This document shows, one piece after another, positions 12,501 to 38,287 of a stretch of DNA of 64,000 nt. Origin of the DNA: Pseudomonas sp. B21-028 (lineage in GTDB: Bacteria; Pseudomonadota; Gammaproteobacteria; Pseudomonadales; Pseudomonadaceae); contig NZ_CP087184.1 in the NCBI RefSeq assembly GCF_024749045.1, forward strand, positions 6,324,001 through 6,388,000. The letters are read 5' to 3'. The number at the start of each line of letters is the position of its first letter. Position 1 is the first letter of the stretch. The position numbers were made by a program, and so were the translations under genes. The notes beneath the pieces are model-generated. The model saw nothing but the letters and a program-made list of their open reading frames with translations, had not been told where the DNA came from and did not search any database.

Positions 12501-12637
12501 GCGGCCGCCATGACCTTGAGCGCCACCTTGCGCTCCAATGAGCGCTGGGTCGCCAGGTAAACACTGGCCATCGCGCCTTCGCCGATCTCGCCGTCGATGT
12601 CGTAGCCGGGGATCTGGATGTTCAAAACGGAGTTCAT
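9536..12637 (-). CDS. ppkA: T6SS serine/threonine protein kinase PpkA with VWA domain
   Basis: A 1033-residue membrane kinase, about the length of P. aeruginosa PpkA. Residues 8-280 are a Hanks-type kinase: Gly loop GEGAMASV (19-26), Lys41, HRDVKPAN (131-138), DFG (151-153) and SPE (178-180). A Pro-rich linker (~290-365), one membrane helix (~375-400), a Pro/Lys-rich spacer and a periplasmic part with a von Willebrand A domain follow; the latter has a DTTVS MIDAS-like motif. The kinase phosphorylates Fha to trigger T6SS assembly and is reversed by PppA. The start is ATG 12637, which overlaps the pppA stop; the frame is open beyond it, but the kinase fold begins here. Confidence 0.95.
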
Positions 12638-13365
12638 GACGGCACCTTCACAACCACCACGGTGATGTTGTCCGGGGCGCCGCGCATCAGGCCCAGGGAG
12701 ACCAGGCTGCTGGCAATTTCGCCGGGTTCGTCGTGGCTCAGCACTTCGCGGATTTCTTCGTCTTCGACGGTCTTGGTCAGCCCGTCGCTGCACAACAGGT
12801 AGCTGTCGCCGGGCACCAGCAGCAGCTCGGTCATCGCCAGGTTCAACTGCGCCTCGACACCGATGGCGCGGGTGACGATATTGGCCCGGGGATGCACCCG
12901 GGCTTCGGCCTCGCTGAGCAGGCCGCTGTCCTGCAGGTCCTGGACGTAGCTGTGATCCCGGGAGATGCCTTCCAGCACGCCGTCGCGCAGGCGATACAAG
13001 CGGCTGTCGCCGGCCCACAGGCACATGCCGCGCAGGTCACGAACGGCGAGTACCACCACGGTGCTGCCCATCATGGTCACGCCACGGTTGGCGGTTTCTT
13101 CACGCACGGCGGCGTTGACCCGCTGCAGGTCGCTTTGCAGCGCCGCGATGTATTCGTCCAGCGAACGGCCCACGGCAATGTTGCGCAGGCTGTCGACGAT
13201 CAGGCTGCTGACGTAGTCGCCGGCCGCGTGCCCGCCCATGCCATCGGCGACCACCCAGAGGCCGTTTTCCGGCAGGTCCAGGCACGCATCTTCGTTAACC
13301 TGGCGGACCATGCCAACGTGGCTCTTGCTTGCAGATTTGCAGGCTTTCCCAGCACTTGGACGCAT
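12634..13365 (-). CDS. pppA: T6SS PP2C-type protein phosphatase PppA
   Basis: A 243-residue PPM/PP2C phosphatase with the metal-binding motifs VNEDA (~23-27), VADGMGGHAAG (~39-49), LWAGDSRLYR, CSDGLTKTV and GAPDNITVVVV. It removes the phosphate that PpkA puts on Fha, resetting T6SS activity and allowing the machine to be redeployed. It starts at ATG 13365 directly against the TAG stop of tagF (no spacer) and its stop overlaps ppkA, so tagF-pppA-ppkA are tightly packed. Confidence 0.95.
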   Translation of the reverse strand: MRPSAGKACKSASKSHVGMVRQVNEDACLDLPENGLWVVADGMGGHAAGDYVSSLIVDSLRNIAVGRSLDEYIAALQSDLQRVNAAVREETANRGVTMMGSTVVVLAVRDLRGMCLWAGDSRLYRLRDGVLEGISRDHSYVQDLQDSGLLSEAEARVHPRANIVTRAIGVEAQLNLAMTELLLVPGDSYLLCSDGLTKTVEDEEIREVLSHDEPGEIASSLVSLGLMRGAPDNITVVVVKVPS

Positions 13366-14019
13366 CTACACAACACCTTCTTGGCCGAGCAAAAATTGCG
13401 CAAAGTCAGCAGCGGCCGGCAGGCCCTGGCAGCGCATCAAACCGGGCGCGATGCGCTCCGAACCCTGCCCCCACCACAGGCTCGCGCCCTCACATGCCGA
13501 CTCGGCCAGGGCACTCATGCGCCGCTGCGGGTCGGTGGCATCGAAGCGATGCAGGCTGGCAAACCGGTTGCTGGGGATACGTGGCAGAAACATCGGGCTG
13601 CCAAGGTTTTCCAGTTCCGCGCCGAAGGCTTCGAACGTGGCCTCTACGCTCAATGTGCTCAGCAGCAGGTTCTCCACCCGCTCGAACCACTCATCCGCAC
13701 CGCCGACCACCGACGCCGGGTCCGCATCGGGCTCCAGCAACACCGCGACGGTCAGCGGAAAATAGCGACCGACCCGGTCGATGCTCGGCATCACCACCCC
13801 AACCGCAGCGTCCGGCCCGCACACGCCGGGGGCGACCATGAAGCGCCACAGCGGACTGACCAGATAGGCATCCAGCCATCGCTCGCCGAGGCAGGTCTGA
13901 CTGGCGAGCAAACCGGCCGCCAGCCACGAGTCCCACGGGCCAATAAAGCTCTGGGGCAAGCCACGGCTGACAAAATCCCCACGGCTGGCCAACTTTCCAT
14001 AGAAACCCGGTGTACTCAT
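13366..14019 (-). CDS. tagF: T6SS repressor TagF
   Basis: A 217-residue soluble protein of the TagF family (DUF2094), with the typical opening GFYGKLASRGDFVSRGLP and WDSWLAAGL, and an internal GRYFPLTVA. TagF blocks T6SS activation by a route separate from the phosphorylation switch. In some bacteria it is fused to a PppA-like phosphatase; here the two are adjacent separate genes. It overlaps the tssM stop by 4 bp (ATGA-type coupling). Confidence 0.93.
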   Translation of the reverse strand: MSTPGFYGKLASRGDFVSRGLPQSFIGPWDSWLAAGLLASQTCLGERWLDAYLVSPLWRFMVAPGVCGPDAAVGVVMPSIDRVGRYFPLTVAVLLEPDADPASVVGGADEWFERVENLLLSTLSVEATFEAFGAELENLGSPMFLPRIPSNRFASLHRFDATDPQRRMSALAESACEGASLWWGQGSERIAPGLMRCQGLPAAADFAQFLLGQEGVV

Positions 14020-17000
14020 AGCCGCTCCGGCAGGCTGAAGCCGCTGAGCACGCGGCTTTTGAACGGGTTGAAGGCACTGCTGGCCCGCAGCTCGTAGGAA
14101 GCGCTGGCGTTATCGACCCGCAGCCGCAGGTTGAAGCGGTCCGGCGAGTTGCCGGCGGTCAGGTCCGACTGCTCCAGCAGCCGGAACCAGGCCCACGGCC
14201 CATCCAGGGTGATACCGGAGCGACCGTTGGAGGACGGCGGCATGACCGAGATCCGCACCACGCCGATGCTGCCCGGGTTCGGCCACTGCATGGCGGTCGG
14301 GCGACTCGGGCCGTGGTCGTAGCTCAACTGCTGGCCATCGAGATCGAGCAGAAACTGGGTGATGGTCGAGTCCATCGCCACCGGCTTGAGCTCGAAGCGC
14401 ACCATCGGCTGGGTGCCGCCGGAACGGAAGAACGCGTCGCGAATGGCCGCCGCGCGCTGGAAGGTCTGCAGCACGCCAGGGGCGATGCCGAGTTTCTGCG
14501 CCGCACCCGGCTGCCAGCGCCAGGTCGGTGTGGAAGTATCGACGTAAGGTTGCAGGTACTTGCGGAAGTAGTTGTCCATCACCCCGCCGACGCCGAAGAA
14601 CTGGCCGAAGTCATCCAGGGTCGCGTCCCGGGCACTGCCCGGCGACATCGGATAACGCCCGGCCAGGGACTGGCGGTAGATGTTCACCACTTCGCTGGTC
14701 CAGGCGGCGTTCAGTTGATTGCGCACCCCGCCCATCATGCTGTTGGTGGTGGAGTTAACCACCGACTTGACCAACCCCTGCACCAACGGCGGCTGACGCT
14801 CGGCGTTGAGGCTGACCCGGGTGGCGGCCGCCGCGGCCTGGTTCTTGGCTTCGCCGAGCAAGGCATCGCCGCTGGCGCCGACCATGGCACTGACCTGCAC
14901 GTACAAGGCATTCATGTCGGCCAGCAAGCCATCGATGGCGGCCGGTTCACCTTCGTTTTTGCTGACGATGCTGTTGAGCTCGGCGAAGTGCGCCGTGATC
15001 GGGTCGTCGCTGGCCTGCGGTGCGCTTTGCGTCGCCTGCTCCTGGCCGAGCAAGCTGCCCAGGCGTTCCTTGAGCTTGTCCACCCCGCCCTCCACCGGCG
15101 CGCCCTTGGCGGCCAGCAGGCGTTCGTCCTGTTGCAGGTCGGTTTCCTTCGCCACCGCCACCAACAGTTTTTTCAACGGCGAGGTCGGCCCGGAAATCAC
15201 CCGTAGCACATCGGCGGCCTGGGCCACGCTGGTGATCGGTACGAAATCGATGTCGGCGAGCAAGGCATCCCATTGACGCTGATAGTCCTGGAAGTACAGC
15301 CGGCGCACATCGGCGGCCAGGCTGGCAACGTTCTGCTGATCGGCCTCTTCATGGCCCAGCACCCATTGCTCTTCGGCCAGGGTGCCGGTCTGGCTCAGGC
15401 TGGTGAGCAAGAAGCCCTGGCGGTAGCCCTTGACGGTGAAGAACCCGCTCAACGGCTCGCCCAGCGGCTTGCCGCTCTTGCGGCTGAACACCAGCGCGGC
15501 GTCACGCCCGGCGGCTTCGTTGATGCGGAAGTCCGGGATGCCCTCGGGCAGTTTCTGCCGCTTGATCCGGTCGTAGACGCGTTGGGCCACGGGCAGCTGT
15601 TGCAACTGCCGGCGCAGGTCTTCGATCAGCCGAGGGTCCAGCCGTGCGGTGGGCGGGTGACGTTCGAACAGCGCTTGCAGATGCTCGCTCAGGGCCAGCC
15701 GCTGTTCGGCCGGCAGGTCACGGGGCAGGCTGCGATCCCAGTCCAGGGCAATCCAGGCCTTGATGAAGTCGGCGTCGTAATGCTCGTTGTCGGCGAGCAT
15801 CAGGTAGGCCTTCAAGCCTTCGTAGAGGAAATCCGAATTGCCGCCGCTGTGCAGTTGCTCTTCGATGCGCGTCAGCAGGCGCGGCGCGAACACCGCGATC
15901 AGCAACTTGCGATAGACGCTGCCGGACTCGGCTTCCAGCATGTCGCCCTGGTACAGACCCAGGCCCTCGGCCCAATCCGGCGCATCACCCGCCAGGTGTT
16001 TAACGGCGTTGAGCAACGGCAGCACCGCGAGCACATCGCGCTGTGCCGGGCTGAGGTTCTGCACGGTCTGGCCCAGCGGCGCGACCTTCTGGTCGACCTG
16101 GGCGATGTAGGCCTGGTTGGCCCGATAACTGACCCACCACAACGTGCTGACCACCAGCACCACTAGCACGGTGGAGGCCAATACGCCCCGGGCGATCCAT
16201 TTGCGCCGACGCTCGACTTTCGGGTCGACGCCCACCAGCCCACGCTCGGCGAAGGCAACAGCGGTGAAGAGTTTTTCGATGAAGTAGCTGCGCCCAGTGC
16301 CGGTCTGGCGCGCCAGGTGCTGGCGGTCCAGGTTCATGCTTTGGGCCATGGAGCCGATCAGGCGGTCGATCGGGCTGCCTTCCTGGGTGCCGCTGGTGAA
16401 ATACACACCGCGCAGCAGCACGCGCTCTTCGAAGGCGTTGGGCTTGAACACGCCGTCGAGGAAGCTTTGCAGGCAATCCTTCAAGGCACCGAACTGCTGC
16501 GGGAAACCGTAGATCAGATCACGCCGCGCCGGGTCGCGTTCCTGTTGCAGGCGCTCCACCAGCCGGTCGTTGAGGCGCTGTTCCAGGCCGGTGAATTCGC
16601 TTTGCAGGTGCGCCAGCGGACTGTCGTTGCTCTTGCCATCGTCGAGGGCGAAGGTCATGCCCCAGACCTGCGCGCGCTCTTCCTTGCTCAGGGTGTCGAA
16701 GTACTCCATGAACCCGGGCACGAGGTCGAGCTTGGTCAGCATCAGGTAGACCGGGAAGCGCACGCCCAGTTGGGTGTACAACTCCTGGATACGCAGGCGG
16801 ATCGCGGCGGCATGGGCAGCGCGCTCGGCGTCGCTGCCCAGCAGCAGGTCGGACAGGCTGATGGCGATGAACGCGCCGTCAATCGGACGCCGGGCCCGTT
16901 GCTTTTTCAGCAGCCCCAGGAAGCCCAGCCAGGCAGCCTTGTCGATGGCCGCGTCGCTGTCCTGGGTGGTGTAGCGCCCGGCGGTGTCGAGCAGGACGGC

Positions 17001-17516
17001 CTGGTCGGTGAACCACCAATCGCAGTTGCGGGTACCGCCGACGCCGCGCACCGCACCGGCGCCCAACTGGGCCGCCAACGGGAAGTGCAGCCCGGAGTTG
17101 ACCAGCGCGGTGGTCTTGCCCGACCCCGGCGGGCCGATGATCACGTACCACGGCAGTTCGTAGAGGTTACGACGCTCGTCACCGCCCAGCTTGGCCTTCT
17201 TCAACAGCGCCAGGGCTTCGTCCATGCGCTGGCGAAGGGTTTCGAGTTCTTCGGCGGTGGCGATGCTGGTGGGGTCGGGCGGCGTCTGCTCGGCCAGGCT
17301 GCGCATGACTTCGGCGGCCTGACGACGGGCCTGGATGATGCGGAACACGCGGTAGGCGATCCACACCGCGAACACCAGGATGATCAACGCCCAGCGCCGC
17401 CCTTCGGGCACCAGCCAGTCCAGCAGCGGGCCGACGAACCAGATGATCAGACTCAGGGCAATCAGCCCCAGCAACGGGATGACCCAGCGGATCATGAAAC
17501 TGAAAAACGCCTTCAC
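14016..17516 (-). CDS. tssM: T6SS inner-membrane core protein TssM (IcmF-like)
   Basis: A 1166-residue protein forming the T6SS trans-envelope complex with TssL and TssJ. Two N-terminal membrane helices (~10-30 and ~42-58) are followed by a cytoplasmic NTPase-like domain with intact Walker A GPPGSGKTT (~128-136), the IcmF-type region (LMLTKLDLVPGFMEYF), a third helix (~435-455) and a large periplasmic part containing the IcmF C-terminal and DUF1215-type regions. The gene overlaps tssL (ATGA). In the family the Walker A motif is needed in some species and absent in others; here it is complete. Its periplasmic C-terminus should bind TssJ, whose gene is frameshifted in this sequence. Confidence 0.95.
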   Translation of the reverse strand: MKAFFSFMIRWVIPLLGLIALSLIIWFVGPLLDWLVPEGRRWALIILVFAVWIAYRVFRIIQARRQAAEVMRSLAEQTPPDPTSIATAEELETLRQRMDEALALLKKAKLGGDERRNLYELPWYVIIGPPGSGKTTALVNSGLHFPLAAQLGAGAVRGVGGTRNCDWWFTDQAVLLDTAGRYTTQDSDAAIDKAAWLGFLGLLKKQRARRPIDGAFIAISLSDLLLGSDAERAAHAAAIRLRIQELYTQLGVRFPVYLMLTKLDLVPGFMEYFDTLSKEERAQVWGMTFALDDGKSNDSPLAHLQSEFTGLEQRLNDRLVERLQQERDPARRDLIYGFPQQFGALKDCLQSFLDGVFKPNAFEERVLLRGVYFTSGTQEGSPIDRLIGSMAQSMNLDRQHLARQTGTGRSYFIEKLFTAVAFAERGLVGVDPKVERRRKWIARGVLASTVLVVLVVSTLWWVSYRANQAYIAQVDQKVAPLGQTVQNLSPAQRDVLAVLPLLNAVKHLAGDAPDWAEGLGLYQGDMLEAESGSVYRKLLIAVFAPRLLTRIEEQLHSGGNSDFLYEGLKAYLMLADNEHYDADFIKAWIALDWDRSLPRDLPAEQRLALSEHLQALFERHPPTARLDPRLIEDLRRQLQQLPVAQRVYDRIKRQKLPEGIPDFRINEAAGRDAALVFSRKSGKPLGEPLSGFFTVKGYRQGFLLTSLSQTGTLAEEQWVLGHEEADQQNVASLAADVRRLYFQDYQRQWDALLADIDFVPITSVAQAADVLRVISGPTSPLKKLLVAVAKETDLQQDERLLAAKGAPVEGGVDKLKERLGSLLGQEQATQSAPQASDDPITAHFAELNSIVSKNEGEPAAIDGLLADMNALYVQVSAMVGASGDALLGEAKNQAAAAATRVSLNAERQPPLVQGLVKSVVNSTTNSMMGGVRNQLNAAWTSEVVNIYRQSLAGRYPMSPGSARDATLDDFGQFFGVGGVMDNYFRKYLQPYVDTSTPTWRWQPGAAQKLGIAPGVLQTFQRAAAIRDAFFRSGGTQPMVRFELKPVAMDSTITQFLLDLDGQQLSYDHGPSRPTAMQWPNPGSIGVVRISVMPPSSNGRSGITLDGPWAWFRLLEQSDLTAGNSPDRFNLRLRVDNASASYELRASSAFNPFKSRVLSGFSLPERL

Positions 17517-18817
17517 TCGACTCCCTCCGCCAATACGGTGATTTCAACCCGACGGTTGCGTGCACGCCCTTCCGTGGTGGCGTTGGACGCCAGTGGTTCG
17601 GTGTCGCTGCGGCCTTCGGCGCTGAAGCGCTCGGGCTGGCCGGTCTTGGCCGACAGAATCTGCAGCACCGACTGCGCCCGCGCTTCGGACAACGCCCAGT
17701 TGGACGGGAAGCGCAACGTGGCAATCGGACGATTGTCGCTGTGGCCGGTCACCAGGACCTGGCCCTTGACCTTGCGCACCGCATCGGCGATGCGCAGCAT
17801 CAACGGCTCGAAATCGTCCTTGATGCTGGCGCTGCCCGAGGCGAACAGTTCGTCGCCACGGATGGTCACCACCGAACGGTCGACGGCGTCTTCCACCGCG
17901 ATCCGATTGGCTCGGATTTCATCGGCCAGGAAACCGGCCAGGCGGGGACGCTCGACCACTTTCGGCTGCACCACAGGGCGGTCGATGGTCTGCACCGGGA
18001 TCTCGCCGAGGAAGTGAATGTTCTTGAACACCGGTTCGGCATCGGAGGCGAGTTTCATGCGCAGACCGAACAGCAGCGCCAGCAGCAAGGCCGCGCCGAT
18101 GGCCACGGTGATCCATGGCGGCATGAATTGCGCCAGGCGGTCGCGGGCCACGGTGACGCCGCGCCAGTGTGGCGACAACTCGCGTTCGTAGTCGCCACGG
18201 GCACTGCGGATCACCGCACTGGTGCGTTCGCGCAACGCTTCGAGTTGGCTGCGACCGTCGTTCATCACCCGATAGCGCCCTTCGAAACCGAGGCACATGC
18301 ACAGGTACAACAGCTCCAGCAAGTACAAGCGTTCCCGTGGGCTTTGCAGGCAATGTTCCAACAGCTGGAAGACTTTCTCGCCACCCCAGGCTTCGTTGTG
18401 CACGGTGATCAACAGGCTCTGCTTGCCCCAGTCGCTGGTGCCGCCCCAGGGAGTGCTCAATACCGCTTCATCCAGCGCGGTGCACAAGGCATAGCGGGCC
18501 AGCAGCACGTCGTTGCGCACCACCCCGGCAGCCTCGGCGCGCTCTTCGAACTGGCGCAGGTAGGCCAGCAGTTGTGCGCGCAGGCTGGCCGGGGCCGGGT
18601 GCGCGATGGTACTGCGCAGGCGCGTCAGCAGGGCCAGCAGCGGCCCGGCGGCGCTTTCCAGCGGGTTAAGGCCCTGGGCCTTGCCGGTCAGCACCGGCGC
18701 GGCCGGCATCGACAGCGGCGCGGGTGCGGGCTGAGGGCGACCGGCATCCGGGCGGAACGGATCGGCGCCACGGCCGCCGGGCGTTGGCATGAACTGGGTA
18801 CGATCGTCGTTGCTCAT
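17513..18817 (-). CDS. tssL: T6SS inner-membrane protein TssL with OmpA-like C-terminal domain
   Basis: A 434-residue extended TssL (DotU/IcmH type). Residues 1-45 are a Pro-rich disordered tail; ~50-225 the cytoplasmic hook-shaped DotU domain (DEAVLSTPWG, LELLYLCMCLGFEGRYR); ~234-252 the single membrane helix; and ~305-430 an OmpA/MotB-like peptidoglycan-binding domain with VTGHSDNRP and GRARNRRVEI. The extra domain lets TssL grip the cell wall itself, replacing a separate TagL-type anchor. It lies 6 bp after tssK. Confidence 0.95.
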   Translation of the reverse strand: MSNDDRTQFMPTPGGRGADPFRPDAGRPQPAPAPLSMPAAPVLTGKAQGLNPLESAAGPLLALLTRLRSTIAHPAPASLRAQLLAYLRQFEERAEAAGVVRNDVLLARYALCTALDEAVLSTPWGGTSDWGKQSLLITVHNEAWGGEKVFQLLEHCLQSPRERLYLLELLYLCMCLGFEGRYRVMNDGRSQLEALRERTSAVIRSARGDYERELSPHWRGVTVARDRLAQFMPPWITVAIGAALLLALLFGLRMKLASDAEPVFKNIHFLGEIPVQTIDRPVVQPKVVERPRLAGFLADEIRANRIAVEDAVDRSVVTIRGDELFASGSASIKDDFEPLMLRIADAVRKVKGQVLVTGHSDNRPIATLRFPSNWALSEARAQSVLQILSAKTGQPERFSAEGRSDTEPLASNATTEGRARNRRVEITVLAEGVE

Positions 18818-18823
18818 CGCGAA

Positions 18824-20158
18824 TTATCCTCGGATCGCCCAGAACGCCAGGTTCAGCCCTGGGAACTGGCCGGCGATGTGGAACGCAAAACCGCCGGAGT
18901 TGCTCAGTTGCTGCCAGTGGTCGCTGCCCCGGTCGAGTTCGTAGTAGGTGGAACCGGCGTGGTACGGAAGCTGACGGGGCGCCACCGGCAACGGCAGCAG
19001 ACCGATGCCCGGCAGTTGCAGGTTGACCAGGTCGCGGATGTGCTCCACCGAACCGACCTTGCTCTGCTGGCCGAAACGGCTGCGCAGGGTTTCGGCGGGG
19101 ACGTCGGCGCGCACCACCAGGATGAAACTGGCGCTGTCGAGCAGGGTCTTGTCGGCCAGCATTGCCACGTGGATACCGTAGGCTTTCTCGACAATCGGAA
19201 TCGGTGTGGCCTTGCTGTCGATCAGCATCGACAAGGCCTCGCGCAGCGCCTGCATCACCGGCGTGAAGCTCAGCACCAGGTCGTCATGCTGGTAGGGCGG
19301 GTATTCCTGCGGTCGTCGCCCGGACGCGGTGAAGGTGGAGAACTCTCCGGCCAATGCCACCAGTTCGCTGTAGAAGCGCTCGGGGTGCAGCGGGCTCAGC
19401 TGGCTCAGGTGCTGGACCAGCGGCTGGGCACGGTTGACCAGTTGCAGCAGCATGAAGTCGGCGATCTCCGAAGCGCCACCGGCACCGGATGCCACCACCC
19501 GTCCGGCGAGGGCTTCGCCGCGTTGATGGAGCAGGCCCAGCAGCTCACTGCGAAACGCCGCCAGCGGCTTGGAGGCGACCACATCCAGCAGCGGCGGGAT
19601 GTAGGTGTCGTCGAGCACAAGGGCGCGGTCGGCGCGCTTCTCCTTGATGCGCACCACGCCGACGGCGGCGTAGTCGCCAATGCCGTCCTGGCTGGTCAAC
19701 AGGCGCAATGCCCGGGAGCCGAGGGCCACCGGGGCGCGGTTTTCAAACGGTGCGTTGTCGTCGCGCACTTCACTGACCTGGCTGACATAGCGCGCTGCGC
19801 CCAGGGGCTCGCCTTCATCCACGGTGTCACGAGCGCCAGCACGCTTGAGCGGCAGGGCCAGGTAGACCAGGCCGTCGCGCAGGTTGTCGTCGATGTTCAG
19901 CGGGGTCGGCGCCACGTCATCCTGGGGAATATTGAAGGGCGTGCCGTCCGGCAACAGGCCCCGCGCCGAGATGATCGCCAGCTTGCCCTGGACCAGCAGG
20001 CCCTGGTCGATGAGCAATTCGGAAAAGCCCCAGGCGCCGGCCGACAAAGGCCGGCTGCGTGCGTCGATGAGGTTTTCCAGGTAACGGTCGTGCTGTTGGA
20101 AGTGCTGCGTTCCGATGAACATGCCTTCCGACCAGACCACGCGATTGTTCCAGGACAT
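18824..20158 (-). CDS. tssK: T6SS baseplate protein TssK
   Basis: A 444-residue cytoplasmic protein (VasE/ImpJ family) that ties the T6SS baseplate wedge (TssEFG) to the TssLM membrane complex. It opens with the characteristic NRVVWSEGMFIGTQHFQQHD. Length fits the family. Start ATG 20158; it follows the tssJ stop by 15 bp. No membrane segment is seen. Confidence 0.95.
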   Translation of the reverse strand: MSWNNRVVWSEGMFIGTQHFQQHDRYLENLIDARSRPLSAGAWGFSELLIDQGLLVQGKLAIISARGLLPDGTPFNIPQDDVAPTPLNIDDNLRDGLVYLALPLKRAGARDTVDEGEPLGAARYVSQVSEVRDDNAPFENRAPVALGSRALRLLTSQDGIGDYAAVGVVRIKEKRADRALVLDDTYIPPLLDVVASKPLAAFRSELLGLLHQRGEALAGRVVASGAGGASEIADFMLLQLVNRAQPLVQHLSQLSPLHPERFYSELVALAGEFSTFTASGRRPQEYPPYQHDDLVLSFTPVMQALREALSMLIDSKATPIPIVEKAYGIHVAMLADKTLLDSASFILVVRADVPAETLRSRFGQQSKVGSVEHIRDLVNLQLPGIGLLPLPVAPRQLPYHAGSTYYELDRGSDHWQQLSNSGGFAFHIAGQFPGLNLAFWAIRG

Positions 20159-20173
20159 GGGGGCTCCGATTGC

Positions 20174-20673
20174 TTATTGGGCAGGGCTGGATGGGGGAAC
20201 GACGACGTCGCTGCGCACGGCGCGCACATCGAGGCTGATCTGGTATTCGGTGTACTCACGCGGCGGCACATTCAACACCGTGCGCCACAACGACTGATCC
20301 AGTTCGCGGTAGCCCACCAGGATGCCGATGTGGCGGGTCGACGGGTCGAGGTCGCGCTGCAGGCTCAGCTGCTGGCCGGGCTGGATCAGCACTTCGTCCT
20401 GATCGATCAGATCGGCGCCCAGGGTCGCCTGGGCCCGTTCGGCCAGGGCGAAATAATCGGAGCGGCCGAAGGTCGCCGCATTTTTCAATTCGAAGATCCG
20501 CACCCGCACCGGGGCCGGCTGGCCGGTGGCACCGGGGTTGAGACCGTTGATGGCGTGGAAGTGCAGCTCGACGGCGGCGGTATCAGCCTCTTCGGACTGG
20601 GGTTGGCCGCATCCTTGGCACACGCCGTCAACAGAAGCGCGGCGGCAACTGCGAGTAAAAACCTGGAAATCAT
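20174..20673 (-). pseudogene. tssJ: T6SS outer-membrane lipoprotein TssJ, split by a frameshift
   Basis: Two frames must be joined to give a normal TssJ. The 5' frame, from ATG 20673 with a good GAGGA ribosome site, encodes a lipoprotein signal (MISRFLLAVAAALLLTAC, lipobox LTAC, then AKDAANP). The 3' frame, ending at 20174, encodes the TssJ beta-sandwich (AAVELHFHAINGLNPG, VRVRIFELKN, VGYRELDQSLWR). Adding one base to the C run at 20599-20602 (GGGG on the + strand) joins them into ~166 residues reading ...DAANPQSEEADTAAVEL. TssJ anchors TssM to the outer membrane and is normally essential. The 3' frame is open to an ATG at 20743, but that version has no signal peptide and overlaps the fha stop. 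This is either a true loss or a sequence error. Confidence 0.85.
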
Positions 20674-20739
20674 CCTGCGTCCTCAATGACGTTTGAGCTA
20701 TCCGTTGTTTGTCCTGTGAAGGGTTATGGACAGCGACGC

Positions 20740-22287
20740 TCAACGGCGTCGCTGTCGGGTACTGTGTTCTTCGTAGGCACGACTGAATTCACGACCGAAC
20801 AGGTCCTGGAAATCCTCCTGGGCTTCCCGGGAAATATTGCTGTAGAGCTCGGTAAACTGCTGCCAATACTGGGCCTGCCGCGAACCGCTGAAAATCCCCG
20901 ACAGCCCGCCAGGCTTGCCCATGCGTTCTTCCAGTTGCGCCGGTTCGAAGCGCGCCAGCAAATGTTTGATCGCCGCTTCCACACCGGCCATGACCGCCAG
21001 TTGATGGGCCCGTAGGTCATCGAAGCTGTCACGCACGGCCGCGTCCGGCGCCATGAACGCCTGGTTGCCGTGGCGCAACAGCAGCAACAGGGCTTCATCG
21101 ACGTTAGGGGCGAATTTCAGCGGGTTGTTTTCCACTGGCTGGATCATCGTCTGCTGGATACGGAACTCGCCCTTGAGGCTGCTACGGGCACGCAAAACGT
21201 CGATCAGACCTTCGACCATCAACCGATAGCTGCGCCCGATGCTTTCCATCTGCGCCTCGGCCTGGGCCTTGTCCAGGCGCAACTGATCCAGACCTGCACC
21301 GCGCAGGAAGGCTTGCAGCAGGTCGGGCTGGGCGGCGTCTACCGGAACAGCAGGCGTAACGGGCATAACCGGCGCGACTGGAGCGACCGGCGGCTCGACA
21401 CGGGCCACTGGCGGTTCGGGCAGCGGCGCAGGTTCGGTCGGTATGCGAACATCCGCCAGGTTGAACTCGGCGACACTCGTCTCAGGCGCAAAGATGTCCG
21501 GCACCGGGATCGCTGGCTCGGGTATCTGAGGCACGGCTACCGCGACCGGCTCGACCGTCGGCACTTGTGCGACCGGCGGCGGGGCGACGGCCACCGGGGC
21601 AACGGGCACGGGCGCCGGCTTGTCGCTGAACGGGTCCCAATCCTCCGGGATCACCGAGGCAGAACCCATCGTCACCGGCTCGACCACAGGCGGTGGGCTG
21701 GGACGGGGAATCGGCGTTGGCGGGCGGAAATCGTGCTGCTGGGCCGGCACATGATCCGGCTGGGTGGCCGGCGGCACGCTGGGCGGCGCGAGGAAATCAA
21801 ACAGGTCCGGCATCGTGTCCATGGCTGACACGCCCTGGAACTGCGCCGGCGGAACCATGGGGATCGGCGCGGGGGTATTCACGGGCGCGGCCGCCTGGCG
21901 GCCCATCAACGCTTCGAAGCTGCTGGGCGACTCGGCAAAGGGATTGCTGTCGGTGACCGGCAGGTTGAAGTCGACACGCGCCTGGATTTCATAATCACCG
22001 ATGCGGATGATCTCGCCGTCCTGCAAGGGTTCACTGTTGCCTTTGCGCAGGCGAACACCGGCCTTGACCAGTTCCACGCCATTGGTGCTGTTATCGGTTA
22101 AATAATACCGGCCGTCTTTGTATTGAATAACGCAATGTTTACCGGATACCAACCGTTCAGGATCCGGCAATACCCAGTCATTATCGGAACTACGGCCAAT
22201 TGCCATCACTCCCTGGTCCATGGACTTTTCAGAACACTGACCGGGGGTAATCTTGTGATAACTAGTGATAGTCAAACACAGCGGCAT
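20740..22287 (-). CDS. fha1: T6SS forkhead-associated protein Fha (TagH)
   Basis: A 515-residue cytoplasmic scaffold. The N-terminal FHA domain (~1-105) shows AIGRSSDND, VSGKHCVI and STNGVELV, the phosphothreonine-binding loops. A Pro/Val/Ala-rich linker (~160-350) connects it to a conserved T6SS C-terminal domain (~370-515). When PpkA phosphorylates Fha it promotes T6SS assembly; PppA reverses this. The start is ATG 22287 because a full AAGGAGG ribosome site lies 4 bases before it; the frame is open further upstream without such support. It is the first gene of the leftward run and diverges from tssA. Confidence 0.93.
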   Translation of the reverse strand: MPLCLTITSYHKITPGQCSEKSMDQGVMAIGRSSDNDWVLPDPERLVSGKHCVIQYKDGRYYLTDNSTNGVELVKAGVRLRKGNSEPLQDGEIIRIGDYEIQARVDFNLPVTDSNPFAESPSSFEALMGRQAAAPVNTPAPIPMVPPAQFQGVSAMDTMPDLFDFLAPPSVPPATQPDHVPAQQHDFRPPTPIPRPSPPPVVEPVTMGSASVIPEDWDPFSDKPAPVPVAPVAVAPPPVAQVPTVEPVAVAVPQIPEPAIPVPDIFAPETSVAEFNLADVRIPTEPAPLPEPPVARVEPPVAPVAPVMPVTPAVPVDAAQPDLLQAFLRGAGLDQLRLDKAQAEAQMESIGRSYRLMVEGLIDVLRARSSLKGEFRIQQTMIQPVENNPLKFAPNVDEALLLLLRHGNQAFMAPDAAVRDSFDDLRAHQLAVMAGVEAAIKHLLARFEPAQLEERMGKPGGLSGIFSGSRQAQYWQQFTELYSNISREAQEDFQDLFGREFSRAYEEHSTRQRRR

Positions 22288-22706
22288 CTCGCCTCCTTGC
22301 CAAATACTTTCACACGCCTGCGCGCGGGTGAGTCGAGGGGAAAATTCGCCCTGCTGGCTCACCGGAAAACCTTGCAAACAACCGCAAAACGGCTTTTTGC
22401 CAGCATGAAGGCTGATATTAACCGGCCTGCATGACAAAAAACCGCTCTCAGTACCTTCCTCGACCTGTCAGTCGCACGGGTTGTTAAGCGCCTCACAACT
22501 GTAACAGAGTGGAAATAGCTTACCTTGACAAGCGATAAGTACTACACCAAAAATGCACAACTTCTTGAATATCAATGATGGCACTTTAAGATCATATAGC
22601 ATCTAACGGGCCATTACCGTCAAGGGACACGGGAAGTTCCATCCGGAACTTGCGTGTGAACTGCCCCGACTTCATTGTTCAGCGGGCGATAGGGAGATCG
22701 ATCCAA
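22288..22706. promoter_or_regulatory. Divergent T6SS control region between fha and tssA
   Basis: A 419-bp gene-free stretch, AT-rich at 22500-22615 in contrast to its surroundings. For tssA, a sigma70-like promoter TTGAAT (22564-22569) - 17 bp - TAAGAT (22587-22592) is possible. The tssA leader has GGA motifs at 22625, 22632, 22645 and 22693 and a short hairpin AAGTTCC/GGAACTT (22634-22651). On the fha side, CAAGGAGG (22292-22299, complement) is both the ribosome site and a fit to the RsmA/CsrA consensus CANGGANG. RsmA control of HSI-I is known in P. aeruginosa; its action here is inferred. Confidence 0.55.
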
Positions 22707-23744
22707 GTGGATGTGCCTTTGTTGCTCGCCGCCGTTTCCGCGAACTCGCCTTGTGGCGAAGACCTGGAATATGACGCGGATTTCCTGCGCCTGGAGCGTG
22801 ATTCCCGAGGCCAACCCGAGCGCAGCATGGGCGACTCGATATTGCCCGCCGAACCTCCCGAGTGGCGCAGCATCCAGCAACAGAGCCTGGACTTGCTGCA
22901 ACGCAGCAAAGACCTGCGCATCACCCATTTCCTGTTGCAGAGCTCCCTGGCCCTCGAAGGTCTCCCGGGCCTGGCCCGCGTATTGACGCTGATCAGCGAA
23001 TTGCTCAAGCAATACTGGGCCGACCTGCACCCGCGCCTGGATGCCGATGACGACAACGATCCCACCGTGCGCATCAACGCCCTCGCCGGGCTGACGTCCG
23101 ATATCACCATCCGCCTGCTGCGTGAGAGCATCCTGGCCCGCTCGCGTGCGTTCGGCCCCGTCAGCCTGCGCGCCGCCGCCAACGCCAGCGGCCTGCAAAG
23201 TTTCGCCGACGAAAGTCTTGGTGCCGAACAGCTTGCCGGCGCGTTGCTCGACTGCGACCCCGAACAGCTGGAACTCACCCGTGCGGCGCTGCTAGAAGCC
23301 CGCGCCGCCGCCGAAGCCATCGAACAGCAGGTCAGCGATCAGGTCGGTTCCGCCCAGGGTGTGGACCTCGGCCCGCTGAAGCAGCCACTGAAGATGGCCT
23401 TGCAGATTCTTGGTCAGTTCGCGCCGCAGAGCGGCGACAGCGCCCCTTCGGACACGGTCGCCGACGACAGCGCTGCGCCAGCCGAATACACCAGCGCGCC
23501 GAGCACGCCGCGCAACACCGGCATGAGCACGATCAGCGGTGAAATCAACAACCGCGACGACGTGCTGCGCAGCCTGGACCGGATTCTCGCTTACTACACT
23601 CGTCACGAGCCCTCCAGCCCCCTGCCGGTGCTGTTGAATCGGGCGAAGAATCTGGTGCACGCCGATTTCGCGGCCATCGTGCGCAACCTGATTCCCGACG
23701 GCATGAGTCAATTTGAAAACCTGCGCGGCCCGGACAGCGAATAA
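22707..23744 (+). CDS. tssA: T6SS protein TssA
   Basis: A 345-residue ImpA-family protein. The N-terminal domain is recognisable from SPCGEDLEYDADF and PEWRSIQQQSLDLL, and a variable middle leads to a C-terminal region with SGEINNRDDVLRSLDRILAYY. TssA primes baseplate and sheath-tube assembly and can cap the distal end. The GTG start at 22707 is chosen because relatives begin at xDVPxLLxxVS; the ribosome site (GGGAG, about 10 bases before) is a little distant. An alternative ATG start at 22650 would add 19 unlikely residues. It is the first gene of the rightward run. Confidence 0.9.
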   Translation: MDVPLLLAAVSANSPCGEDLEYDADFLRLERDSRGQPERSMGDSILPAEPPEWRSIQQQSLDLLQRSKDLRITHFLLQSSLALEGLPGLARVLTLISELLKQYWADLHPRLDADDDNDPTVRINALAGLTSDITIRLLRESILARSRAFGPVSLRAAANASGLQSFADESLGAEQLAGALLDCDPEQLELTRAALLEARAAAEAIEQQVSDQVGSAQGVDLGPLKQPLKMALQILGQFAPQSGDSAPSDTVADDSAAPAEYTSAPSTPRNTGMSTISGEINNRDDVLRSLDRILAYYTRHEPSSPLPVLLNRAKNLVHADFAAIVRNLIPDGMSQFENLRGPDSE

Positions 23745-23825: not shown

Positions 23826-24332
23826 GTGGCGAAGCAAAGTTCTCAGAAATTCATCGCGCGCAACCGCGCGCCTCGAGTGCAGATCGAGTACGACGTCGAG
23901 CTCTACGGCGCCGAGAAAAAGGTCCAGTTGCCCTTCGTCATGGGCGTAATGGCCGACCTCGCCGGCAAGCCCGCCGAGCCTCTGGCACCCGTGGCCGACC
24001 GCAAGTTCCTTGAAATCGATGTCGACAATTTCGACTCGCGCCTCAAGGCCATGCAACCACGCGTAGCGTTCCATGTGCCCAACGAACTGACCGGCGAAGG
24101 CAACCTGAGCCTGGACCTGACCTTCGAAAGCATGGACGACTTCAGCCCGGCGGCCGTGGCCCGCAAGGTCGACTCGCTGAACAAGTTGCTCGAAGCACGC
24201 ACCCAATTGGCCAACCTGCTGACCTACATGGACGGCAAGACCGGCGCTGAAGAAATCATCATGAAGGCGATCAAGGACCCAGCGCTGTTGCAGGCCCTGG
24301 CGAGCGCGCCGAAGCCAGCACAGGATCAATGA
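23826..24332 (+). CDS. tssB: T6SS contractile sheath small subunit TssB
   Basis: A 168-residue VipA-type sheath protein, with RVQIEYDVELYGAEKKVQLPFV and LTFESMDDFSPAAVA. TssB and TssC form the contractile sheath around the Hcp tube. The start is GTG 23826, preceded by AGGAG. Its stop overlaps the tssC start, which supports equimolar production of the two sheath proteins. Confidence 0.97.
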   Translation: MAKQSSQKFIARNRAPRVQIEYDVELYGAEKKVQLPFVMGVMADLAGKPAEPLAPVADRKFLEIDVDNFDSRLKAMQPRVAFHVPNELTGEGNLSLDLTFESMDDFSPAAVARKVDSLNKLLEARTQLANLLTYMDGKTGAEEIIMKAIKDPALLQALASAPKPAQDQ

Positions 24333-25831
24333 TCATGACCGACAATACCGTCCGCGAAGGCGCACAGAACCTGGGCGCGACTGAAGAAACCAGCGAATTC
24401 GCGTCCCTGTTGCTGCAAGAATTCAAGCCCAAGACCGAGCGTGCCCGCGAAGCGGTCGAGACCGCCGTGCGTACCCTGGCCGAGCAGGCCCTGGCGCAGA
24501 CCGACCTGGTGTCCAACGACGCCATCAAGTCGATCGAATCGATCATCGCCGCCATCGACGCCAAGCTCACCGCGCAGGTCAACCAGGTCATCCACCACCC
24601 GGACTTCCAGCAGCTGGAAAGCGCCTGGCGTGGCCTGCACTACCTGGTCAACAACACCGAGACCGATGAGCAACTGAAGATCCGCGTGCTCAACATCTCC
24701 AAGCCGGACCTGCACAAGACCCTGAAGAAATTCAAGGGCACGGCGTGGGACCAGAGCCCGCTCTTCAAGAAGATGTACGAAGAAGAATACGGCCAGTTCG
24801 GCGGCGAGCCTTACGGCTGCCTGGTGGGCGACTACTACTTCGACCAGTCGCCACCGGACGTGGAGCTGTTGGGCGAACTGTCGAAAGTCTGCGCGGCGAT
24901 GCACGCACCGTTCATTTCCGCCGCCTCGCCGACCGTGATGGGCATGGGCTCCTGGCAGGAGCTGTCGAACCCGCGCGACCTGACCAAGATCTTCACCACG
25001 CCAGAATACGCCGGCTGGCGCTCGCTGCGTGAATCGGAAGACTCGCGCTACATCGGCCTGACCATGCCGCGCTTCCTGGCGCGCCTGCCGTACGGCGCCA
25101 AGACCGACCCGGTGGAAGCCTTCGCCTTCGAAGAAAACACCGACGGCGCCGACAGCTCGAAATACACCTGGGCCAACGCCGCTTACGCAATGGCGGTGAA
25201 CATCAACCGTTCGTTCAAACACTTCGGCTGGTGCTCGCGCATCCGTGGCGTGGAGTCCGGCGGTGAAGTGGAAAACCTGCCGGCCCACACGTTCCCCACC
25301 GATGACGGTGGCGTGGACATGAAGTGCCCGACCGAGATCGCCATTTCGGACCGCCGTGAAGCGGAACTGGCGAAGAACGGTTTCATGCCGCTGCTGCACA
25401 AGAAAAACACCGACTTCGCCGCGTTCATCGGCGCCCAGTCGCTGCAGAAACCGGCCGAGTACGATGACCCGGACGCCACCGCCAACGCCAACCTGGCCGC
25501 GCGCCTGCCGTACCTGTTCGCCACTTGCCGTTTCGCCCACTACCTGAAGTGCATCGTGCGCGACAAGATCGGTTCCTTCAAAGAGAAGGACGAGATGCAG
25601 CGCTGGTTGCAGGACTGGATCCTCAACTACGTCGACGGCGACCCGGCGCACTCCACCGAAACCACCAAGGCCCAGCACCCACTGGCTGCGGCCGAAGTGA
25701 TCGTCGAAGAAGTCGAAGGCAACCCGGGGTACTACAACTCCAAGTTCTACCTGCGCCCGCACTATCAGCTCGAAGGGCTGACCGTGTCGCTGCGCCTGGT
25801 GTCGAAACTGCCTTCGGCCAAGGGCGCGTAA
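24329..25831 (+). CDS. tssC: T6SS contractile sheath large subunit TssC
   Basis: A 500-residue VipB-type sheath protein: FQQLESAWRGLHYLV, LVGDYYFDQSP, FISAASPTVMGM and PRFLARLPYG are typical. Start ATG 24329 (or ATG 24335), overlapping tssB. The N-terminal segment should bind ClpV for sheath recycling. A facing pair of family A repeats separates it from hcp. Confidence 0.97.
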   Translation: MIMTDNTVREGAQNLGATEETSEFASLLLQEFKPKTERAREAVETAVRTLAEQALAQTDLVSNDAIKSIESIIAAIDAKLTAQVNQVIHHPDFQQLESAWRGLHYLVNNTETDEQLKIRVLNISKPDLHKTLKKFKGTAWDQSPLFKKMYEEEYGQFGGEPYGCLVGDYYFDQSPPDVELLGELSKVCAAMHAPFISAASPTVMGMGSWQELSNPRDLTKIFTTPEYAGWRSLRESEDSRYIGLTMPRFLARLPYGAKTDPVEAFAFEENTDGADSSKYTWANAAYAMAVNINRSFKHFGWCSRIRGVESGGEVENLPAHTFPTDDGGVDMKCPTEIAISDRREAELAKNGFMPLLHKKNTDFAAFIGAQSLQKPAEYDDPDATANANLAARLPYLFATCRFAHYLKCIVRDKIGSFKEKDEMQRWLQDWILNYVDGDPAHSTETTKAQHPLAAAEVIVEEVEGNPGYYNSKFYLRPHYQLEGLTVSLRLVSKLPSAKGA

Positions 25832-25949: not shown

Positions 25950-26045
25950 GGGATCTTCGTTGAGTTGAAGATCCCTGTTGAACACAGAATTCGCAGGTCG
26001 GCGTCAAACCAAACAATGTGGTTAGAAACCACACAGGGAGAAAAC

Positions 26046-26534
26046 ATGGCTGTTGATATTTTCATCAAGATCGGCGACATCAAGGGCGAGTCCATGGACA
26101 AGGCCCACAAGGACGAGATCGACGTCCTGAACTGGAGCTGGGGCATGTCCCAGTCCGGCAACATGCACACCGGCAGTGGCGGTGGCGCCGGCAAGGTGAA
26201 CATCCAGGACCTGTCGCTGACCAAATACGTCGACAAGGCTTCGCCGAACCTGATGATGCACTGCGCCAGCGGCAAGCACATCGACAAGGTCAAGCTGACC
26301 GTGCGCAAGGCCGGCGGTGAGAGCCAGGTCGAGTACATGATCATCAACCTGGAAGAAGTGCTGATCACCTCTCTGAGCACCGGCGGCTCGGGCAGCGATG
26401 ATCGCCTGACCGAAAACGTCACCCTGAACTTCGCCAAGGTGCTGGTGGACTACCAGCCGCAGAAAGCCGACGGCAGCAAGGAAGGCGGTCCGGTCAAGTT
26501 CGGCTGGAACGTGCGTCAGAACGTCAAGGTGTAA
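26046..26534 (+). CDS. hcp: T6SS tube protein Hcp
   Basis: A 162-residue Hcp1-like protein that stacks as hexamers into the tube carrying small effectors. Conserved words are VDIFIKIGDIKGES, LNWSWGMSQ and VTLNFAKVLVDYQPQ. The start is ATG 26046 with GGGAG 5 bases before. No C-terminal effector extension is present. It is followed by a strong hairpin, then the Tae4 pair. Confidence 0.97.
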   Translation: MAVDIFIKIGDIKGESMDKAHKDEIDVLNWSWGMSQSGNMHTGSGGGAGKVNIQDLSLTKYVDKASPNLMMHCASGKHIDKVKLTVRKAGGESQVEYMIINLEEVLITSLSTGGSGSDDRLTENVTLNFAKVLVDYQPQKADGSKEGGPVKFGWNVRQNVKV

Positions 26535-27073: not shown

Positions 27074-27507
27074 TCAAGGCTCACTGCGCAATATTGGTTG
27101 GAGGCTTGTTATCGAGCTTGACTGCCTGCGCTCAGCAGTTGGCAATGCCATCAGCAACGGGGGGACAACAAGTCGTCATGATGGGCGGACAACAGGTGAC
27201 GCTGGAGAACAACCAACAGCGCTGTGTGTTACGTAAACCGGACCAGACCCTACCACTCGACTTGTCATGGCCTTGCCAGTTCACTGTTGACCGACATGGA
27301 AAACCGCACGTCGAGACCTTCGGCGAAGTGCCCATTGTTATCGTTATGCATATGGTGGCAGACGCTGAGAACCACGAATGTCGTTCGGCGTACCGCGCCA
27401 TCCGCCTGATTAATGGGCAACTTGAGCCTTCAATCATCGCTAATACCGCCAGTTGCATGAGCGGCGCAGGTGACCAGAAGAATTACACAGGCCTGTTCAC
27501 TTGGTAA
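27070..27507 (+). CDS. Candidate periplasmic immunity lipoprotein for Tae4
   Basis: A 145-residue protein with a lipoprotein signal ending LTAC (Cys20), placing it in the periplasm where the amidase would act. The mature part has several cysteines and short beta-like segments ([27 protein letters not shown]). Start ATG 27070 overlaps the tae4 stop by 4 bases, and its own end overlaps tssE. I infer immunity from position, localisation and low-GC character shared with tae4; I cannot confirm that it is a Tai4 homologue from sequence alone. Confidence 0.65.
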
Positions 27508-28013
27508 CCGAAATTGCCACCCGCGATCGCCTGCAACCTTCCCTGCTGGACCGGTTGACCGATGACGATCCGACCAACCCCAAGGAAAGCGCCGACAAGC
27601 GCGTCCTGTCGCTCACCCAGTTGAAAGCCTCGGTGCTGCGTGACCTGGCGTGGCTGCTCAACACCACTTCGTTGCTCGACGCCGATGCCACGCTGCACAC
27701 CCCGGCGGGCACCTCAGTGGTGAATTTCGGGCTGCCGGCGCTGGCCGGCAACAGCGCCTCGAACGTCGATCTTTCGGCGCTGGAAGCCCTGATCCACCAA
27801 GCCATCGCCACTTTCGAGCCGCGTATCCTGCGCCATACCTTGCGCGTGCGGGCCCGGGCGACGGCCGAGATGAACCACAACGCCTTGAGCTTCGAGATCG
27901 AAGGCGACCTCTGGGCGCAGCCGGTGCCGCTGCGCCTGATGCTGCAAACCGACCTGGACCTGGAAACCGGCCATGTGCGCGTGGTCAACGCCGATCAGCG
28001 GAGACGCTCATGA
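27501..28013 (+). CDS. tssE: T6SS baseplate protein TssE (gp25-like)
   Basis: A 170-residue gp25-like baseplate protein that nucleates sheath assembly. ERLQP-type opening (here [17 protein letters not shown]), [23 protein letters not shown] and [12 protein letters not shown] are typical. The only suitable start before RLQP is TTG 27501, which lies inside the last codons of the upstream immunity gene; no separate ribosome site is evident, so translation is probably coupled to that gene. The stop overlaps tssF (ATGA). Confidence 0.92.
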
Positions 28014-29869
28014 ACCCGCGCCTGCTGGAGCTGTACAATCAGGAACTGCATCACGTGCGCGAAAGCGCGGCGGAGTTCGCCAAGGAATACCCCAAGATCG
28101 CCAGTCGGCTGACGTTGTCCGGCATGGACTGCGCCGACCCGTATGTCGAGCGGCTGCTGGAAGGTTTCGCCTACCTGACGGCGCGGGTCCAACTCAAGCT
28201 CGACGCCGAGTACCCGACCTTCACCCACAACCTGCTGGAAATCGCCTACCCCCATTATCTGGCGCCGACGCCGTCGATGACCGTGGTACAGATGCAGGCC
28301 GACCCGGACGAAGGGTCGTTGAGCAGCGGCTTCGAGCTGCCCCGGGACAGCGTCCTGCGCGCCGCCCTGGGGCGTGAAACCCAGACCTGCTGCGAATACC
28401 GCACCGCCCACTCGGTGACGCTGTGGCCGTTGCAGGTCAGCCAGGCCGAGTACTTCGGCAACCCGTCCACGGTGCTCGGACGCCTGGCCGCCAGTGAGCC
28501 GAAAGCCAAGGCCGGCTTGCGCCTGACCCTGCGCACCGGCGCCGAATTGCCGTTCAACAGCCTGGCCCTGGACAATCTGCCGCTGTACCTCAGTGGCGCC
28601 GATGAACAACCGTTCCGCCTGTACGAACAACTGCTGGGCAGCGCCTGCGCGGTGTTCGCCCGCCAACCCGGCGGCAATTGGGTCGAACGGCTGCCCCAGG
28701 ATGCACTGCGCTCGCGCGGCTTCGATGACGTCGACGCGGCGCTGCCGGTGGTGCCGCGAGCGTTCCAGGGCTATCGCCTGCTGCAGGAATACTTCGCCCT
28801 GCCCCAGCGCTTCCTGTTCGTCGACTTCACCCAACTGAGCCGGGCAGTCAAACGTTGCGATGGCCAGGAGCTGGAGTTGATCGTGCTGTTCGACCGCCAC
28901 GACCCGAGCCTGGAAGGCAGCGTCGGTGCCGCGCAGTTCCTGCCGTTCTGCACCCCGGCCGTCAATCTGTTCCCCAAGCGCCTGGACCGCATCCACCTGT
29001 CGGACCGGGTCAACGAGCATCACGTGATCGCCGACCGCACCCGGCCGATGGATTTCGAAGTGCATTCGCTGACCGGCCTCACCGGCCACGGCACCGGGCC
29101 GGAGCAGCCGTTCCTGCCGTTCTATGCCGTGCGCGACCCGTCCCGCTATGGCCGCGACCAGGCCTATTACACGGTGCGCCGTGAACCGCGGGTGTTGTCC
29201 AGCGATCAGCGACGCAACGGCCCGCGTTCGACCTACATCGGCAGCGAAACCTTTGTCAGCCTGGTGGACAGTCACCAGGCGCCCTACCGCCATGACCTGC
29301 GCCAACTGGGCGTGACCGCGCTGTGCACCAACCGCGACCTGCCGTTGTTCATGAGCGTGGGCAACGGCAAGACCGACTTCACCCTGGCCGACAGTGCGCC
29401 GGTCGGCGCCGTGCGCTGCGTCGCCGGGCCGAGTCGGCCGCGGGCCAGCCATGCCCACGACGCCAAGGCCTGGCGGCTGATCAGCCAGTTGTCGCTGAAT
29501 TACCTGTCCCTCAGTGAACAAGGCCAGGGCGCCGCCGCCCTGCGCGAACTGTTGCGCCTGTACGGCGACAGCAACGACGCGGCGCTGCAATTGCAGATCG
29601 AAGGCCTGCGGGACGTCAGCAGCAAGGCCTGCACGCGACGCTTGCCGATGCCCGGCCCGATTGTGTTCGGCCGGGGCCTGGAGATCACTCTGGAATTCGA
29701 TGAAAACGCGTTTCGCGGCACCGGGGTGTTTCTGCTCGGTGCGGTGTTCGAACGTTTCCTGGCACGCTACGTGTCGATCAACAGTTTTACCGAGACGGTG
29801 ATCCGTACCACCGAACGCGGCGAGATCATGCGATGGAAAGCCAAGCCCGGACGTCGTCCGACCCTGTGA
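28010..29869 (+). CDS. tssF: T6SS baseplate protein TssF
   Basis: A 619-residue wedge component (VasA/ImpG family). It begins [18 protein letters not shown], with EYPKIASRL and [19 protein letters not shown], all typical. TssF pairs with TssG and TssE in the baseplate around VgrG. ATG 28010 overlaps the tssE stop. The frame is open about 360 bases upstream, but that part is a shadow of tssE. Confidence 0.95.
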
Positions 29870-33591: not shown

Positions 33592-33680
33592 TGTGGGAGC
33601 GAGCCTGCTCGCGATAGCGGAGTTACATTCAACCCAGTGTTGACTGATACACCGCCATCGCGAGCAGGCTCGCTCCCAAA
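33592..33680. repeat. REP family A facing pair between clpV and vgrG
   Basis: GTGGGAGCGAGCCTGCTCGC and its inverse, 40 bases apart, in the 158-bp gap before vgrG. Confidence 0.92.
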
Positions 33681-33726
33681 GTGGGTTGCGTTCCTTCAGC
33701 CAAACACAATTTGCACGGGACACTCG

Positions 33727-38249: not shown

Positions 38250-38287
38250 CACGCCTGCCTTCCTTGAAATCCCAGTCAGTTAAGCCC

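What the first reader, a model, noticed from the sequence alone, without database searches (positions are those of the whole stretch)
20174..20673. tssJ is split by an apparent one-base deletion in a C run
The lipoprotein signal (ATG 20673, GAGGA site, lipobox LTAC) and the TssJ fold lie in different frames. Adding one base to the four-base run at 20599-20602 restores one continuous protein. TssJ is normally essential for the envelope complex, while every other core gene appears intact. If real, the machine is recently disabled or phase-variable at a homopolymer; if not, it marks a base-calling error.
Basis: partly seen in the sequence, partly recalled or inferred. Interest (0 to 1): 0.75.

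Follow-up and report, generated by a model that had tools for sequence, protein, structure and literature searches.

The report
Split tssJ: probably a sequencing error
A gene for one part of a bacterial weapon looks broken in this genome sequence, but several unrelated housekeeping genes in the same assembly are broken in the same small way, so the break is most likely a sequencing slip and not biology.

Summary
In a complete type VI secretion cluster of a Pseudomonas near P. corrugata, the TssJ lipoprotein signal (from 20673, minus strand) and the TssJ domain (PF12790) lie in different frames; the sequence is one base shorter near 20,600 than in its relatives. In 109 of 109 related loci examined (93 distinct ORFs) signal and domain share one frame. 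The mature tssJ piece shows no decay (dN/dS 0.12-0.14), and the other 12 core genes are recognisable and open.

The cause is most likely a base-calling or assembly error. Among 536 genes (585 kb) compared with two relatives, I read 5 as having internal one-base breaks here only: pdxA (twice; the only pdxA found), ksgA, rsmE, a gene at 36734-38252, and tssJ. Five of six events are deletions in or beside C/G runs. I found no clear private one-base break in either relative (550 and 547 genes). Raw flag counts were alike (16, 15, 14), so this rests on reading each row. mutS and mutL are open.

Phase variation and programmed frameshifting are not supported. A real, recent mutation remains possible; reads would decide.

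The parts
20485..20673 (-). tssJ, first piece: lipoprotein signal with lipobox LTAC; leaves the TssJ frame after about 24 codons and runs on to a stop at 20485
20174..20743 (-). tssJ, second piece: ORF holding the TssJ domain (about 20228-20575), without a signal peptide in its own frame
20596..20604 (-). place of the frame change: one base fewer than in the relatives, beside a four-C run
20740..22437 (-). FHA-domain protein TagH/Fha (ORF from its leftmost start)
18824..20158 (-). tssK
17513..18817 (-). tssL (DotU + OmpA-like)
14016..17516 (-). tssM (IcmF)
13366..14019 (-). tagF
12634..13365 (-). PP2C-type phosphatase, pppA-like (NF033484 match below its curated cut-off)
22650..23744 (+). tssA (ImpA_N)
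23826..24332 (+). tssB
24329..25831 (+). tssC
25965..26534 (+). hcp (ORF from leftmost start; the real start is probably further in)
27501..28013 (+). tssE
27650..29869 (+). tssF (ORF from leftmost start; domain begins at residue 121)
29833..30885 (+). tssG
30872..33568 (+). tssH / clpV
33637..35658 (+). vgrG
36734..38252 (-). second frame break in the window: the conserved C-terminus of this gene (weak DUF6630 match) lies in another frame; one base more than in two relatives

Best explanation
The split is most likely an error of the assembly: a single base lost in base calling beside a short C run. In the living strain tssJ would then be an ordinary, continuous gene for the outer-membrane lipoprotein that binds TssM, inside a complete T6SS-I. 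Shown here: the split, its absence from relatives, and other one-base breaks in conserved genes of the same assembly. Inferred: that these breaks share one technical cause, and that tssJ is one of them. No reads were available.
For: (1) In 109 of 109 related loci the gene is continuous. (2) In the same assembly I read 5 of 536 genes (585,276 bp) as carrying internal one-base breaks: pdxA (two), ksgA, rsmE, the gene at window 36734-38252, tssJ; 5 of the 6 events are one-base deletions in or beside C/G runs of about four to six. (3) pdxA is found in three pieces in three frames that together cover its family profile (2-205, 205-251, 247-320) and is the only pdxA match in the genome, while both relatives have one open copy; ksgA next to it is in two pieces (1-173, 162-255). 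Three such lesions within about 1 kb of a housekeeping operon fit a poor patch of sequence better than biology. (4) Reading the control rows the same way, I found no clear private one-base break in G238 (550 genes) or G172 (547 genes). (5) An RND transporter gene at genome 255.7 kb is in two frames (905 and 202 aa) where three relatives have one open frame of 1059 aa; another RND match has a 513-aa open frame where similarly scoring matches in the relatives have 1052 (orthology not tested). (6) mutS and mutL are open, so these breaks are not explained by loss of either. (7) No decay in the mature tssJ piece (dN/dS 0.117 and 0.135). (8) Long-read assembly errors of this kind, deletions mostly after runs of four to five, are described for Pseudomonas syringae assemblies (PMC12007338, passages).
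Against: No reads, sequencing method or second isolate of the species were available. The raw flag counts were alike in the three genomes (16 of 536, 15 of 550, 14 of 547); the difference rests on my reading of the rows, most of which are over-extended starts, shadow ORFs or mirror images of breaks in the window's genome. The ab initio scan likewise flagged 11, 10, 10 and 10 switches in its four sequences; it recovered the pdxA, ksgA and 36.7-kb breaks but missed tssJ and rsmE. rsmE has a conserved ATG downstream of its break, so its reading is less sure. One of six events is an insertion. Isoleucyl-, valyl- and leucyl-tRNA synthetase-type genes are all open, so no strictly essential gene was caught broken. 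In PMC12007338 A/T runs gave about twice as many errors as G/C runs, whereas the events here are at C/G. A true mutation in tssJ could sit in an imperfect assembly.
Confidence: 0.75

Rival explanations
1. A real, recent one-base deletion has inactivated tssJ. The signal and the TssJ domain are no longer joined, TssM loses its outer-membrane partner and T6SS-I is silent or weak, while a neighbouring second T6SS with its own TssJ may still work.
For: The split is in the only sequence available. The genome has two further T6SS clusters (TssC at 6.30 and 4.02 Mb), one with its own lipobox-bearing TssJ, so loss could be tolerated. Natural T6SS-debilitating mutations are known in other bacteria (PMC8578542, abstract).
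Against: None of 109 related loci is broken. No relaxation in the mature tssJ piece or in the other T6SS-I genes compared (TssE was not in that comparison; hcp gave 0.35-0.52, but its ORF includes upstream sequence that is probably not coding). The lesion is of the same kind as others in this assembly.
Confidence: 0.2
2. The locus is phase-variable: the run changes length at high frequency and switches T6SS-I on and off.
For: The frame change lies beside a homopolymer. A six-base unit a few codons further on varies in number between species.
Against: The run is only four bases. Among 73 distinct intact copies with a recognisable site 61 have a longest C run of four or fewer and none exceeds five. 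No other split copy among 109. The six-base unit is in frame and cannot switch the gene.
Confidence: 0.02
3. The split is read through by programmed ribosomal frameshifting or by RNA-polymerase slippage, as at the tssM1 gene of Citrobacter rodentium.
For: Precedent in another T6SS membrane-complex gene, C. rodentium tssM1, with 20-25% frameshifting at a run of 11 A (PMC4256274, passages). Here a single backward slip of one base on the C run would change to the TssJ frame (from the sequence).
Against: No long A or T run; four C only. The RNA around the site folds no better than shuffles (z +1.58; 189 of 200 shuffles fold at least as well). The split is not conserved: 0 of 109.
Confidence: 0.02

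Closest known systems
TssJ / SciN / VasD outer-membrane lipoprotein of T6SS (PF12790, TIGR03352)
   Same: Domain, position between fha and tssK in a cluster with tssL and tssM, and a signal with lipobox at the right distance upstream
   Different: As assembled, signal and domain are in different frames; in the relatives examined they are not
Gene-fragmenting indel errors of long-read assemblies (PMC12007338, passages seen)
   Same: One-base indels, mostly deletions, at short homopolymers, breaking conserved genes
   Different: In that study A/T runs predominated; here the events are at C/G runs, and the sequencing method is not known
Citrobacter rodentium tssM1, rescued by transcriptional slippage (PMC4256274, passages seen)
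   Same: A core gene of the T6SS membrane complex interrupted by a frame change
   Different: There an 11-A tract and measured slippage; here four C, no conserved split
T6SS-debilitating mutations of classical Vibrio cholerae (PMC8578542, abstract seen)
   Same: Would be the precedent if the tssJ lesion is real
   Different: There followed through several strains and tested; here one sequence only

Membership tests
TssJ (PF12790 / TIGR03352) | TssJ domain over the curated cut-off | tested here: met
   122.9 bits against a cut-off of 27; 137 bits against 31.6
TssJ (PF12790 / TIGR03352) | Lipoprotein signal with lipobox in the same frame as the domain | tested here: not met
   Different frames in this assembly; met in 109 of 109 related loci
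TssJ (PF12790 / TIGR03352) | Set in a cluster with tssK, tssL and tssM | tested here: met
TssJ (PF12790 / TIGR03352) | Acylated, in the outer membrane, binding TssM | not testable with these tools
   known for E. coli TssJ (PMC3213119, passages)
Assembly indel error | Other private one-base breaks in conserved genes of the same assembly | tested here: met
   5 of 536 genes by my reading
Assembly indel error | Reads do not support the written base count | not testable with these tools
   no reads available
Decaying pseudogene | Relaxed selection or further lesions in the gene or its cluster | tested here: not met
   dN/dS 0.117 and 0.135 in the mature piece; no other lesion seen in the T6SS-I core genes
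Phase-variable homopolymer locus | Long tract, kept in relatives | tested here: not met
   four C here; 61 of 73 distinct intact copies have four or fewer, 12 have five
Programmed frameshifting or transcriptional slippage | Slippery tract with stimulatory structure, and a conserved split | tested here: not met

The most novel reading that the evidence does not exclude
tssJ really is split in this strain and T6SS-I still fires, either by low-level recoding at the short C run or by borrowing the TssJ of the neighbouring second T6SS (34% identical, own lipobox, about 33 kb away).
Probability: 0.03. Interest if true: 0.6.

Novelty: not a real feature. Interest (0 to 1): 0.1.

Why it matters
If it is an error, as I think likely, it matters as a warning: this one-contig assembly carries about one gene-breaking indel per 100 kb of coding sequence by my reading (6 events in 585 kb), so claims of lost functions, including tssJ, pdxA and ksgA, should not be made from it without reads. 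If it were real, it would be one more example of a T6SS lost by a single recent mutation.

Tried and rejected
Phase variation and programmed frameshifting: rejected on run length, RNA folding and lack of conservation. Mutator strain: mutS and mutL are open; other repair genes were not looked at. A long-standing pseudogene: rejected on dN/dS. A signal peptide in the domain's own frame: none seen in the translation.

Plasmid collection: no match. Protein search with the mature piece: 267 hits, the best 120 listed, all with PF12790 and 160-208 aa long; no copy identical to this strain's, and clustering at 90% hides close relatives, so this did not settle whether other isolates of the species are intact. 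Literature; no paper on this split was found (one search held no paper with five of its six terms).

First frame-break scans were too noisy because ORFs were taken from their leftmost start; I replaced them. In those first scans I set aside the row at window 36734-38252 as a C-terminal variant; some searches showed that it is a frame break. Rows flagged in the controls and not followed further include possible in-frame stops in G238 (window-genome ORF 587076) and in G172 (ORF 62125), and one short ORF (680-1037) in which the window's genome differs from both. Labels were provisional: its rows 'tssE 26615' and '27070' are the Tae4-like effector and its neighbour; the real tssE (27501-28013) was not in that comparison.

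Full report
What is there. The window is part of a one-contig Pseudomonas genome (6,493,931 bases; the window is 6,324,001-6,388,000). At the tssJ region its nearest relatives by DNA identity are Pseudomonas sp. PSB18 and ICMP22404 and P. corrugata DSM 7228 (94-95%); the species itself is not named by any search. The region 9.5-35.7 kb holds a complete T6SS cluster. All 13 core components, TssA to TssM, are recognised, with TagF, an FHA protein and a PP2C-type phosphatase and a kinase. From its gene order I take it to be the H1-type T6SS-I described for P. corrugata and P. mediterranea as related to HSI-I of P. aeruginosa (PMC4528175, passages); I made no tree.

The split. The 62-aa ORF 20485-20673 begins with a lipoprotein signal and lipobox. 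The ORF 20174-20743 carries the TssJ domain. They are in different frames. In alignments the window is one base shorter than its relatives beside a four-C run near 20,600; a separate six-base in-frame unit varies in copy number between species and has no bearing on the frame. In 109 of 109 related loci (29, 80; 93 distinct ORFs) the lipobox and the domain share one frame. Intact copies therefore exist in every relative that I examined.

Is the gene decaying? No. The mature piece has dN/dS 0.117 against G238 and 0.135 against G172, and most other T6SS-I genes compared are lower (for instance tssM 0.012 and 0.021, clpV 0.007 and 0.004). tssA (0.11) is similar; hcp gave 0.35 and 0.52, but its ORF was taken from a start that is probably too early. 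So the lesion is either very recent or not real.

Is the assembly trustworthy? In the window's genome 16 of 536 genes (585,276 bp) were flagged. After reading each row I take five genes as internally broken by one base: pdxA (twice), ksgA, rsmE, the gene at window 36734-38252, and tssJ. The others lie upstream of a conserved start, in shadow ORFs, or close to an end. In the reciprocal controls 15 of 550 and 14 of 547 genes were flagged; several of these rows are the mirror image of breaks in the window's genome, and I found no clear private one-base break, though a possible in-frame stop in each was not followed. A second, semi-automatic pass gave the same picture. The similarity of the raw counts means that the result depends on the reading, and I give it as such.

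The housekeeping cases carry the weight. pdxA matches its family profile only in three pieces in three frames (2-205, 205-251, 247-320), and no other pdxA was found in the genome, while G238 and G172 each have one open copy. From general knowledge, PdxA is needed for making vitamin B6. ksgA next to it is in two pieces. rsmE has its first residues in another frame, with the reservation that a conserved ATG follows. A further RND match in the genome has an open frame of 513 aa against 1052 in similarly scoring matches of the relatives. Against this, the three large tRNA-synthetase genes are open, and so are mutS and mutL.

Weighing. Leaving tssJ out, 5 events in 585 kb give roughly a 0.4% chance that a gene of this size carries such an error; among 93 distinct related ORFs no real break was seen, and a real loss could take many other forms than a one-base deletion beside a C run. 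I put error at 0.75 and a real recent mutation at 0.2. Phase variation and recoding share the small rest: the run is four bases, the RNA folds no better than shuffled sequence (189 of 200 shuffles at least as stable), and the split is not conserved. The known recoding case, C. rodentium tssM1, uses 11 A (PMC4256274, passages).

What it would do. If intact in the living strain, TssJ is the acylated outer-membrane partner of TssM (PMC3213119, passages) in an ordinary T6SS-I. If truly split, the domain would lack export and anchoring, and T6SS-I would be expected to fail, although some T6SSs manage without TssJ (recalled for Acinetobacter). The genome has two further T6SS clusters (TssC and TssK matches near 6.30 and 4.02 Mb); PF12790 finds a second TssJ only in the one at 6.31 Mb, with its own lipobox.

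Verdict. It is a useful marker of the quality of this assembly.

Noticed in passing
window 36734-38252 (-): A second frame break in the window: the conserved C-terminus of a gene with a weak DUF6630 match (below the curated cut-off) lies in another frame, with one base more than in two relatives.
   Followed up: partly
L180:14932-16733 (genome 5,868,863-5,870,664): pdxA in three pieces and ksgA in two pieces within a conserved housekeeping neighbourhood (surA-like gene before, apaG-like gene after, by eye), each with one-base breaks not present in two relatives.
   Followed up: yes
L189:12038-12835 (genome 6.046 Mb): rsmE with its first residues in another frame; a conserved ATG follows, so a later start is not excluded.
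   Followed up: partly
L243:13159-16319 (genome about 253-256 kb), and genome 1,554,118-1,554,702: Two RND transporter genes with shorter open frames than in three relatives (905+202 against 1059 aa; 513 against 1052 aa). Described only.
   Followed up: partly
window 26615-27507 (+): A Tae4-like effector (PF14113) and the small gene after it, by position perhaps its immunity protein, sit between hcp and tssE and are far more diverged from G238/G172 (78% and 37% aa identity; dS above 1) than the core genes on both sides (mostly 96-100%): probably an exchanged cassette.
   Followed up: no
genome 6.28-6.32 Mb, upstream of the window (L122, L123): A second T6SS with its own TssJ (lipobox LAGC) lies about 33 kb from tssJ in a stretch of about 36 kb that has no match over 2 kb at that place in G238. 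A third cluster near 4.02 Mb has TssC and TssK matches but no PF12790 match.
   Followed up: partly
window about 20565-20580: A six-base in-frame unit in the linker of tssJ is present 0, 1 or 2 times in different species.
   Followed up: no
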